A stretch of DNA of 64,000 nt from positions 1-64,000 of the forward strand of contig JAGLOF010000013.1 in assembly GCA_023139105.1 (NCBI GenBank). Reading direction: 5' to 3'. Below, one piece after another: positions 20,936 to 22,607 of this stretch. The notes under the pieces are model-generated. The model was given only the letters and a program-made list of their open reading frames with translations, had not been told where the DNA came from and ran no database searches. Every line of letters starts with the position of its first letter. The first letter of the stretch is position 1. This stretch comes from a bacterium (lineage in GTDB: Bacteria > Zhuqueibacterota > QNDG01 > JAGLOF01). The translations under genes and the position numbers were made by a program.

Positions 20936-21153
20936 CGTGTCCTCCTGTATTTGTGACAGGAGTAAAGTAATTGTTTAATGTTAAAATGTCAAGTTTTTTA
21001 TTGTTTGTTATTGTTTGTTGGTGTTTTCTGTGTGTTGGAGGTGTTAATGGATTTGTTGTTTTTTGGTGGATAGGTTGTTACCTGAGCGCGCGCAACGTTT
21101 GGCGGCTTAAACTGCAACTTTTGACATTGTGACCCGTTGATTCACTTGACAAA
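20936..21153. other. Intergenic stretch upstream of the HEAT-like operon
   Basis: No gene. It should contain the promoter of the minus-strand operon. T/G-rich text (20990-21080) and a GAGCGCGCGCAACG patch near 21086-21099 are visible. The end (21135-21153) is the start of a 28-base segment repeated at 22490. Confidence 0.4.
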
Positions 21154-21162
21154 AAAAGCCCC
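21135..21162. repeat. 28-base repeat, copy 1
   Basis: CGTTGATTCACTTGACAA followed by AAAAAGCCCC-type text; 27 of 28 bases match 22490-22517. On the minus strand it is the U-rich end of a terminator followed by GTCAAGTGAATCAACG. Both copies lie just 3' of small minus-strand frames. Confidence 0.8.
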
Positions 21163-21178
21163 AGAAATAGGGGCTTTT
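21154..21178 (-). terminator. Rho-independent terminator of the DUF5678/retropepsin operon
   Basis: AAAAGCCCC (21154-21162) and GGGGCTTTT (21170-21178) form a perfect 9-bp stem with a 7-base loop, followed on the minus strand by further T residues. It overlaps the stop codon of the small zinc-ribbon frame by two bases. The A and T runs make it potentially two-way. Confidence 0.85.
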
Positions 21179-21292
21179 AAATATTCATTTTTCTATCACA
21201 TTCGATACAAACCACTTGATGCTTTTCCGTCACTAAAACACCACTGGGTTTTGGCCACCAGGGATAAGTGTTTTACACTTGAGACATTTCAT
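21177..21292 (-). pseudogene. Small zinc-ribbon protein, probably frameshifted
   Basis: Starting with the ATG at 21292, three bases after the retropepsin stop, frame one reads MKCLKCKTLIPGGQNPVVF and stops. A second frame, open from further upstream, continues with VTEKHQVVCIECDRKMNI and ends directly in the terminator. Joined, they give a 38-residue or so protein with CxxC, about 25 residues, then CxxC: a minimal zinc ribbon. A shift of one or two bases near the GTGGTGTTTTAGTG stretch (about 21235) would restore it. A sequencing error or a programmed shift are alternatives. Confidence 0.45.
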
Positions 21293-21295
21293 CTG

Positions 21296-21763
21296 TTATA
21301 CATCAAAGTCAAATACTTCTATTGATGGAATTCTAAAAGTGAAAGTTGTTTTGTCCTCAAAGTTAGAAATAGCCATATCCCCTAGGCCGATGATGTCCAT
21401 ACCAATTAACAAGTCAATGCCATTGCCAATTTGGCCTTCAGTAACTCGAACATTCGGAATTCCAAGCTTATTTGGCAAGCCGACATTAACCAGATAAATA
21501 TTGGCATCAACCACACCGCCAGCAGTAGATACCTGTGTCATGGCAGTAGGATGTAGGCCGCACTGCTCAGCGACTCTTTGCGTAACAACTGTATTTGTTG
21601 CTCCGGTATCCCAAATAGCTAGATACTGGGCCATTCGTGGATACTCTGTTGGCTTAATTGAAGGGTCGAATGCAGAAGATATCGAAACTTTTGTCACCAG
21701 AACATTAGACCTGTTTGGGTAGGCATTGGTGAATGCATACACCCGGGGAGAGTCTGGGGTCAT
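21296..21763 (-). CDS. Retropepsin-like aspartic protease family protein
   Basis: 155 residues, no signal peptide. AIWDTGATNTVV carries the DTGA motif of retropepsin-type aspartic proteases, with the supporting hydrophobic segment DLLIGMDIIGLGDMAI later in the fold. Such proteins act as homodimers, each giving one Asp; activity here is untested. The ATG overlaps the stop of the DUF5678 gene (ATGA), so they are co-translated, and a terminator follows after the zinc-ribbon frame. Confidence 0.8.
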   Translation of the reverse strand: MTPDSPRVYAFTNAYPNRSNVLVTKVSISSAFDPSIKPTEYPRMAQYLAIWDTGATNTVVTQRVAEQCGLHPTAMTQVSTAGGVVDANIYLVNVGLPNKLGIPNVRVTEGQIGNGIDLLIGMDIIGLGDMAISNFEDKTTFTFRIPSIEVFDFDV

Positions 21764-22002
21764 ACAAACGCCACACGTGAATGAAAAGTTTGTGTATAGC
21801 TAGAATTACCTGGTTCACACTTCTGGACTAAAAATGTACCTAATGGGTTCTCTTTAGATGATTCGCGAATTGCTTCCATTTCATCATCATAAAAACCAAT
21901 GACCTTTTTATCTCGAATTACAATATACTTCTGGTTGTACTTTTCAACGAGCTCTTCTTGATGCGCAAGATAATATTGGAAGTCCTCTTCAAGCGGCTTC
22001 AT
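21760..22002 (-). CDS. DUF5678-like small protein
   Basis: 80 residues. Text such as FQYYLAHQEELVEKYNQKYI and VIGFYDDEMEAIRESSKE matches the DUF5678 pattern (a protein that 'has' a residue block YxGkyVai..g.vi, then a helix). The strong site GGGAGGTG precedes the ATG. DUF5678-like genes are often found next to retropepsin-like genes, as here, but the joint role is not known. Confidence 0.7.
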   Translation of the reverse strand: MKPLEEDFQYYLAHQEELVEKYNQKYIVIRDKKVIGFYDDEMEAIRESSKENPLGTFLVQKCEPGNSSYTQTFHSRVAFV

Positions 22003-22159
22003 CTTACACCTCCCTCTGATATTGCAGAGTTATTTGTGTATTCCTATTCATTGTACGCTTAAAGCCCCGCCCCTTGTTCCGGGCAAGGTAAATAGGTCAA
22101 CATAGATTAGTGTACAAATAGGAATTATTTGACCAGCAATTGGACAATTTTTACCAAAG

Positions 22160-22189
22160 AACGTTACTGCGGCGCGTCGCAGTAACGTT
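22160..22189. repeat. Perfect 12-bp inverted repeat
   Basis: AACGTTACTGCG (22160-22171), a 6-base GC loop GCGCGT, then CGCAGTAACGTT (22178-22189). No U-tract follows on either side, so a terminator is unlikely; it resembles extragenic palindromes or a protein-binding site. Confidence 0.7.
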
Positions 22190-22489
22190 TAACGCAAAAA
22201 CTGTTCCGATTGTTTCTATATACTATTATAACGGCAACAATTTGGAAAAATTGAGAAAATACACGGGAATAGTCCGTTCACTCCAAAATACAATCATCTT
22301 AATTATGACTAATTAGCATTTAAATAGATGTTAATTAGATGCAATACTAAACTAATAAACTAAAAGTAAAAAATGCAAGAAAAAACTTAACATTTATCAA
22401 TAAAATCCTGGTTTTCACCAAAATTTTACAATTGAATGTATCTATGCCACATTTTTCTTCCTTATTGCCGCAGCTTTGATGTTTTTTCT

Positions 22490-22517
22490 CGTTGATTCAC
22501 TTGACAATAAAAGCCCC
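22490..22517. repeat. 28-base repeat, copy 2
   Basis: CGTTGATTCACTTGACAAT followed by AAAAGCCCC, differing from 21135-21162 by one base. Here the partner arm of the terminator stem is lost, so the stem does not form. TTGACA with TATAGT 16 bases later could also be read as a plus-strand promoter, but nothing is coded downstream. Confidence 0.75.
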
Positions 22518-22529
22518 GAGATTATAGTC

Positions 22530-22607
22530 TTAGGCAAGAATTTTAGAGATTAATTCTAAAGCCACACTTTCCTTAGAATCGCCAATAATCACTTTGTCTT
22601 GAGCCAT
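22530..22607 (-). CDS. Possible 25-residue microprotein
   Basis: MAQDKVIIGDSKESVALELI plus five more residues, with GGAG about nine bases upstream of the ATG. The frame continues upstream to 22760 but that part is low-complexity. It sits just before the second 28-base repeat, as the zinc-ribbon frame sits before the first. It may be a truncated gene end; no family is recognised. Confidence 0.25.
   Translation of the reverse strand: MAQDKVIIGDSKESVALELISKILA

What the first reader, a model, noticed from the sequence alone, without database searches (positions are those of the whole stretch)
21177..22002. DUF5678, retropepsin-like and zinc-ribbon trio
Three small genes with -4 and +3 base spacing end in a strong terminator that touches the last stop codon. 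The third, CxxC-n-CxxC, is split between two frames. A soluble retropepsin-like protease co-translated with DUF5678 and a zinc ribbon might be a regulated proteolysis unit.
Basis: partly seen in the sequence, partly recalled or inferred. Interest (0 to 1): 0.5.

Follow-up and report, generated by a model that had tools for sequence, protein, structure and literature searches.

The report
Retropepsin-like protease with coupled small partner
Two of the three genes form a small, mobile-looking pair found in many bacterial phyla and some phages, in which an HIV-protease-like enzyme is made directly after a small partner protein of unknown function; the third, zinc-finger-like gene is broken here and was found in none of the related copies examined.

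Summary
The trio exists, on the minus strand: DUF5678 (22002-21760) overlaps a retropepsin-like gene (21763-21296) by 4 nt; 3 nt on, a CxxC...CxxC stretch is split between two frames; a terminator overlaps its stop. The pair is real and widespread; the trio is not. DUF5678-like genes lie directly upstream in 45 of 72 protease relatives from genomes and 11 of 11 from viral contigs. Searched from the DUF5678 side in four phyla, 25 of 30 loci have a protease next and 4 a truncated one. No related locus has the zinc ORF, though 19 of 46 proteases end in a SEC-C metal motif and 17 in a basic tail. Protease starts seldom have a ribosome site (5 of 48; DUF5678 starts 27 of 48; background 5.8%), so translation is probably coupled. 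The pair is sporadic, its tree partly mixes phyla, and it occurs on phages. Best reading: an autonomous two-gene regulated protease whose partner is made first and probably restrains it through a conserved, disordered tail. A toxin-antitoxin or defence role is plausible but unproven.

The parts
21760..22002 (-). DUF5678 protein, 80 aa: predicted alpha-alpha-beta-beta-alpha-beta core plus a conserved, low-confidence C-terminal tail (SYTQTFHSRV)
   Evidence: PF18929 above cut-off; AlphaFold2 mean pLDDT 81.7, residues 71-80 mean 45; tail conservation
21296..21763 (-). Retropepsin-like aspartic protease, 155 aa, WDTGATNT active-site motif and LIGMD motif; no SEC-C or basic tail
   Evidence: PF13650/PF13975 E 1.6e-9; alignment A2; fold of a relative matches APRc and HIV protease
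21177..21292 (-). Broken CxxC...CxxC ORF: first half 21292-21233, second half about 21239-21177 in another frame; begins in frame with the retropepsin after its stop
   Evidence: no Pfam family over cut-off; no homologue in related loci or elsewhere in the genome
21154..21178 (-). Intrinsic terminator, 9-bp stem followed by a T run
   Evidence: -14.2 kcal/mol, z -3.0
22003..22014 (-). Shine-Dalgarno-like sequence before DUF5678 (GGGAGGTGTAAG)
   Evidence: sequence printed

Best explanation
The first two genes are an autonomous two-gene regulated-protease module. The small DUF5678 protein is made first from a good ribosome site. The retropepsin-like enzyme is made mainly by ribosomes that finish DUF5678 and restart, so the partner is present whenever protease is. 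Inferred from here on: the partner's conserved but disordered C-terminal tail docks on the protease (at the terminal beta-sheet or the cleft of the retropepsin dimer) and restrains it until the tail is lost or displaced; the C-terminal extension of most relatives (SEC-C metal motif or Lys/Arg tail) places the enzyme on ribosomes or nucleic acid. Because the pair is sporadic, is scattered over phyla, rides on phages, and a protease without any small partner ORF was seen in only 3 of 72 loci, it most likely serves as an accessory toxin-antitoxin-like or defence module rather than housekeeping. In this window the protease has no such extension and the third ORF is a broken, non-conserved leftover. 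Shown: pairing, gene order, spacing, retropepsin fold of a relative, scattered and phage-borne distribution. Inferred: coupling mechanism, complex, inhibition, target, physiological role.
For: Pairing: 45 of 72 protease relatives, 0 of 10,598 control frames; 11 of 11 viral contigs, two of them near-identical; both Leptospira phages examined. A different 38-57 aa peptide fills the same slot in 23 of the 27 loci without DUF5678, plus L060 by eye. DUF5678-first: 30 loci in 26 of 924 genomes, 25 with a protease next and 4 with a truncated one. Coupling: strict ribosome-site motif at 27 of 48 DUF5678 starts, 5 of 48 protease starts, background 5.8%; looser motif 31, 11, background 16.8%. Tail: R76 and V77 each conserved in 82% of 55 rows although residues 75-80 have pLDDT under 50. 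C-terminal extensions: SEC-C 19, basic 17, neither 10 of 46, at least 10 switches on the tree. Fold of a relative: APRc Z 12.8, HIV-1 protease Z about 10.5. Sixteen phyla on one tree, 21 label changes where 15 is the least. Protease frame broken in 7 of 58 protease-first loci, DUF5678 frame in 0 of 58.
Against: No complex or inhibition was shown. The pseudo-fusion model has pTM only 0.64 and leaves the tail disordered. PADLOC matches of the window pair are weak. Of 30 DUF5678-like loci in 26 genomes known to hold the pair, 27 have an intact protease next, but L122 has only fragments, L123 a short remnant and L124 none that I could recognise. Phylum labels cluster on the tree more than in any of 200 shuffles, so vertical inheritance also plays a part. 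The ten proteins nearest the pair on viral contigs gave no repressor or known defence family. Preferential loss of the protease could reflect its length, the way loci were chosen, and assembly errors. The window's protease lacks the proposed docking extension.
Confidence: 0.45

Rival explanations
1. DUF5678 is an obligate activating or substrate-delivering subunit, not an inhibitor. The pair performs specific trimming of a ribosomal or nascent protein, like RimB on RpsF, as a conditional regulatory enzyme.
For: RimB shows that a bacterial retropepsin can act on a ribosomal protein together with operon partners (abstract and passages of PMC11957791). The metal-binding domain of SecA binds ribosomes (passages of PMC6620043). 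Near-invariable pairing.
Against: A sporadic (26 of 924 genomes), phage-borne and decaying distribution fits a conserved housekeeping target poorly. No RimK-like neighbour among the ten window proteins scanned.
Confidence: 0.3
2. Phage or prophage accessory module (superinfection exclusion or counter-defence) that is repeatedly left behind in chromosomes.
For: 11 IMG/VR contigs and Leptospira phage genomes carry it; phage repressor families match up to 4 of 78 proteins around it there; phage capsid genes are 2 of 141 chromosomal neighbours.
Against: The ten nearby proteins on viral contigs that were scanned singly are mostly of unknown function with no repressor. How many chromosomal copies lack phage genes nearby was not settled: only the 25 commonest of 183 families were shown. 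Viral contigs may include chromosomal DNA.
Confidence: 0.15
3. The zinc ORF is a real third component whose frame is disrupted only by an assembly error, making the locus a true trio.
For: Twin CxxC in 47 of 5,000 shuffles; it starts 3 nt after and in frame with the protease; 19 of 46 proteases carry a metal-binding SEC-C tail at that end.
Against: No homologue in the related loci; of 78 tested, two have a CxxC frame downstream, neither similar. No slippery site is evident on inspection.
Confidence: 0.1

Closest known systems
RimB of the RimABK operon (Pseudomonas)
   Same: Soluble bacterial retropepsin-like aspartic protease encoded with partner genes and linked to the ribosome (PMC11957791, abstract and passages)
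   Different: Partners are the phosphodiesterase RimA and the ATP-grasp RimK; here the partner is DUF5678 and no RimK-like gene was seen among the ten window proteins scanned
APRc (RC1339) of Rickettsia
   Same: Best structural match of the protease domain of a relative (5c9f, Z 12.8)
   Different: Search listings link APRc to rickettsial surface proteins (listing only); a DUF5678-like partner of APRc was not looked for
RloA proteases of Pseudomonas aeruginosa
   Same: Bacterial retropepsin-like enzymes, one in an operon (PMC12239564, passages)
   Different: Secreted, with signal peptides, and RloB/RloC partners
Pfam DUF5678 (PF18929)
   Same: Window protein scores above the family cut-off
   Different: The family has no described function; the conserved C-terminal tail lies outside the matched part (residues 17-59)
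PADLOC candidate PDC-M08B
   Same: Also matches retropepsin-like proteins; L148, a distant relative, scores 1.6e-7
   Different: Window protein only 0.0014; none of the 12 partners scanned matched a PDC-M08 model

Membership tests
Retropepsin-like aspartic protease (clan AA) | D-T/S-G-A catalytic motif | tested here: met
   WDTGATNT, residues 51-58. Its invariance in that alignment is partly by construction, because WDTGATNT was a search pattern; DUF5678-first loci vary it
Retropepsin-like aspartic protease (clan AA) | Second hydrophobic-hydrophobic-Gly motif and single-lobe size | tested here: met
   LIG at 119-121 in a 155-aa protein
Retropepsin-like aspartic protease (clan AA) | Retropepsin fold | tested here: met
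   Modelled on relative L045, not on the window protein: 5c9f_A Z 12.8, rmsd 4.0, 122 aligned; 1fmb Z 11.0, rmsd 2.4, 103 aligned
Retropepsin-like aspartic protease (clan AA) | Dimerisation and proteolytic activity | not testable with these tools
   needs biochemistry
DUF5678 (PF18929) | Score above gathering cut-off | tested here: met
   29.1 against 23.2 bits
NCBIfam clan_AA_DTGA / clan_AA_DTGF | Score above curated cut-off | tested here: not met
   22.3 against 57.95 and 16.3 against 57.35 bits
Zinc ribbon (third gene) | Four ligands in one open frame | tested here: not met
   halves in two frames; no Pfam family over cut-off
SEC-C-tailed subgroup of the pair | C-terminal SEC-C motif | tested here: not met
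   Window protein ends at FDFDV and has no SEC-C hit; SEC-C found in 19 of the 46 rows of A2
RimABK system | RimK-like ATP-grasp ligase beside the protease | tested here: not met
   None among the ten window proteins scanned around the locus; the rest of the genome was not searched for RimK
PADLOC PDC-M08 | B component match and A component beside it | tested here: inconclusive
   B component E 0.0014 with no cut-off given; no PDC-M08 model matched the partner
Toxin-antitoxin module | Toxic gene neutralised by its partner | not testable with these tools
   only gene order, spacing, ribosome sites and distribution seen

The most novel reading that the evidence does not exclude
DUF5678 plus retropepsin is an unrecognised class of phage-mobilised toxin-antitoxin or abortive-infection module. 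The toxin is an HIV-protease-like enzyme carried to ribosomes by exchangeable SEC-C or basic tails. The antitoxin is a small protein that blocks it with a C-terminal peptide, and in the Bacteroidales a different small peptide does the same job.
Probability: 0.25. Interest if true: 0.82.

Novelty: new variant of a known kind. Interest (0 to 1): 0.5.

Why it matters
Few bacterial clan AA peptidases have been characterised (said in PMC12239564, passages). A two-gene unit seen in 16 phyla in this sample and in phages, with a near-constant partner of unknown function, gives a compact, testable system for how a single-lobe aspartic protease is controlled inside bacteria. It would also give DUF5678 a first role. 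If the pair proves toxin-antitoxin-like it would, to my knowledge, add retropepsins to the effectors of such modules.

Tried and rejected
Zinc ribbon as a conserved third gene: no counterpart in the related loci, 78 tested downstream, none elsewhere in the genome. Programmed frameshift joining its halves: no slippery heptamer on inspection. Mobile-cassette reading of the 43-bp direct repeat around the trio: only two copies in the genome; no empty site found, because the best matches to the flanking gene in 6 of 11 order-level relatives are 28-31% identical and not clearly orthologous. Hairpin at 22137-22212 as an integron attC site: rejected on inspection, from recalled consensus. RNA family: no match. 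Plasmids: none. DUF5678 fold search: no significant match, best Foldseek E 0.75 and Z 3.5, so the fold gave no function; that excludes nothing. Pfam model PF18929 across 398 Pseudomonadota rang nowhere, not even in a genome known to hold the gene, so that search was set aside and repeated with alignment A1. Protease in relatives of the window genome: 2 of 99, own included.

Weak points. Eighteen of the 45 upstream ORFs built the profile that counted them. Preferential protease decay: 13 broken proteases against 1 broken DUF5678 gene over both sets (my reading of frame coverage); by hand, allowing for profile length, P is about 0.05, so weak. Start offsets were chosen within -30 to +30, so their closeness is partly by construction; 7 of 55 loci had no assignable start. 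In some searches some genomes had more first-look candidates than were scored. Whether the loci without DUF5678 form a clade of their own was not tested (tree holds only DUF5678-linked proteases). Tail class of L016, cut by its contig end, was set by hand.

Literature: DUF5678 gave one paper, seen as a listing and off topic by its title; retropepsin with SEC-C motif, PDC-M08, clan AA aspartic protease with toxin-antitoxin, and retropepsin with anti-phage gave none; retropepsin with prophage gave one plant-virus review (listing); two searches listed other bacterial retropepsins. A statement that the pair is unpublished rests on these searches of an open-access library only.

Full report
What is there. 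On the minus strand of a draft genome (5.29 Mb, 223 contigs, 87% complete) lies a short operon-like group: DUF5678 (22002-21760), a retropepsin-like gene (21763-21296) overlapping it by four bases, and, after three bases and in the protease's own frame, a CxxC...CxxC stretch split between two frames, closed by a terminator whose stem overlaps the last stop. Pfam supports the first two above cut-off and names nothing over cut-off for the third.

The pair beyond this genome. A scan of one genome per species found 72 relatives of the protease. A profile built from 18 of the upstream ORFs finds a DUF5678-like ORF directly upstream in 45 of the 72 (those 18 included), and in none of 10,598 other open frames of the same loci. 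Of the other 27, 25 bear titles of Bacteroidota, one is a Dechloromonas bin and one an unnamed bacterium; in 23 of them, and in L060 by eye, a different peptide of 38-57 residues fills the same slot, 12 of the 23 with the ATGA overlap, while L078, L080 and L081 show neither. So 69 of 72 proteases have a small gene of one kind or the other directly upstream. All 11 relatives on IMG/VR contigs have DUF5678 upstream; L087 and L088 are near-identical. Five phage records matched the protease; the two examined, both Leptospira phages, carry the pair with the protease unannotated. No plasmid record matched.

The reciprocal test. Because those loci were chosen by protease, I searched from the DUF5678 side with alignment A1: 3 of 82 genomes in the window's phylum, 6 of 148 in the phylum of L014 (Nitrospirota), 14 of 296 in that of L043 (Bacteroidota), 3 of 398 in that of L023 (Pseudomonadota). 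The sum is 26 of 924, of which four are the centre genomes, known to be positive. Of the 30 loci, 25 have a protease detectable by profile directly downstream (L127 and L147 in two frames; L133 only at E 7e-4), four (L138, L142, L143, L145) have a visibly truncated protease frame there, and one (L130) is half of a DUF5678 gene broken in the same genome as L127. A search of 26 genomes already known to hold the pair gave 31 DUF5678-like matches; of the 30 fetched, 27 have a full protease next, L122 fragments, L123 a short remnant, and L124 none that I could recognise. Some distant proteases vary the catalytic triplet (DIG in L133, DNG in L153, DAG in the truncated L142). DUF5678 of this kind is therefore, as far as sampled, a nearly dedicated partner of retropepsin-like proteins.

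Coupled translation. A strict ribosome-site motif precedes 27 of 48 DUF5678 starts but 5 of 48 protease starts, with a random background of 5.8%; a looser motif gives 31, 11 and 16.8%. Protease starts that could be assigned lie from -20 to +26 of the DUF5678 stop, 22 of 48 at -4 or -1; they were looked for between -30 and +30, and 7 of 55 loci had none. Several use GTG or TTG. This points to termination-reinitiation, which would keep the partner in step with or above the protease.

Structure. For a relative (L045) in which both genes share a frame, a read-through chain was modelled with 67 aligned rows: mean pLDDT 90.8, pTM 0.64, both domains well defined, and the DUF5678 tail disordered. The protease part matches Rickettsia APRc (Z 12.8, rmsd 4.0, 122 residues) and HIV-1 protease (Z about 10.5). 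The window's own protease was not modelled. The window's DUF5678 protein alone has an alpha-alpha-beta-beta-alpha-beta core; no solved structure matched well (best Z 3.5). Its tail is conserved (F73 75%, S75 76%, R76 82%, V77 82% of 55 rows) although its confidence is low, as for a segment that binds something else. That is an inference.

The metal-binding theme. SEC-C occurs at the C-terminus of 19 of 46 proteases and a Lys/Arg-rich end in 17; ten, including the window's, have neither, and the tree needs at least ten switches. A comparable metal-binding domain of SecA binds ribosomes (PMC6620043, passages). The window's broken CxxC ORF sits where such tails sit and in the same frame, but it is not SEC-C, has no relative in the loci examined (78 tested for downstream CxxC frames, two unrelated hits) and no second copy in the genome. 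The zinc ribbon is therefore not part of a conserved trio.

Mobility. The protease tree holds 16 phyla and needs 21 changes of phylum label, against a least possible 15 and a shuffled mean of 26.9 with 0 of 200 shuffles as low; labels are thus partly clustered and partly mixed, and only nine of 43 inner branches are well supported, so single transfers are not proven. DUF5678 and protease distances correlate (Mantel r 0.48, maximum of 2,000 permutations 0.25), as expected for genes inherited together. Among 141 of 256 chromosomal neighbour ORFs no Pfam family matches more than three (25 of 183 families shown) and no PADLOC model more than three (25 of 71 shown). Among 78 of 84 neighbours on phage contigs, repressors, an integrase, terminases and portal proteins occur, but ten nearby proteins scanned singly gave no repressor and mostly nothing known. 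In the window a 43-bp direct repeat, 84% identical, flanks the group.

Judgement. The firm result is an autonomous two-gene protease unit, probably translationally coupled, spread over many phyla and phages. The most likely working is a protease restrained by its partner; an activating partner is the main rival. Toxin-antitoxin-like or defence use fits the distribution and the rarity of partnerless proteases, but no toxicity, binding or cleavage has been shown. PADLOC's candidate PDC-M08B is a related protease family, weakly matched by the window protein (0.0014) and better by L148 (1.6e-7), which keeps a defence link open. RimB is the nearest precedent I found for a soluble bacterial retropepsin acting with partners on the translation machinery (PMC11957791, abstract and passages).

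Noticed in passing
21120-21162 and 22475-22517: 43-bp direct repeat (84% identical, 27-bp core nearly exact) flanking the group; only these two copies in the genome. The second copy looks like the tail of a terminator without its stem.
   Followed up: partly
22137-22212: Long inverted repeat upstream of DUF5678, -34.8 kcal/mol, z -5.7, none of 200 shuffles as stable; no other copy found in the genome.
   Followed up: partly
L093 7983-8546, L094 3983-4546: Leptospira phage LE1-type genomes carry an unannotated retropepsin gene next to an annotated hypothetical DUF5678 gene.
   Followed up: partly
L127 and L130: In one Nitrospirota genome the DUF5678 gene lies in two pieces on different contigs, as if cut by an insertion.
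   Followed up: no
L061-L068: Nearly identical small-peptide plus protease pairs in several Bacteroidales genera and one Dechloromonas bin (probable recent transfer or contamination).
   Followed up: no
L074, L075, L079: Fibrobacterota copies have a DUF5678-like partner that ends in PMVxL instead of the FHSRV tail; the proteases of L074 and L075 are short, 142 codons.
   Followed up: no
22530-22607: Short 25-codon frame (MAQDKVIIGDSKESVALELISKILA) beside the second repeat copy; possibly a gene remnant.
   Followed up: no
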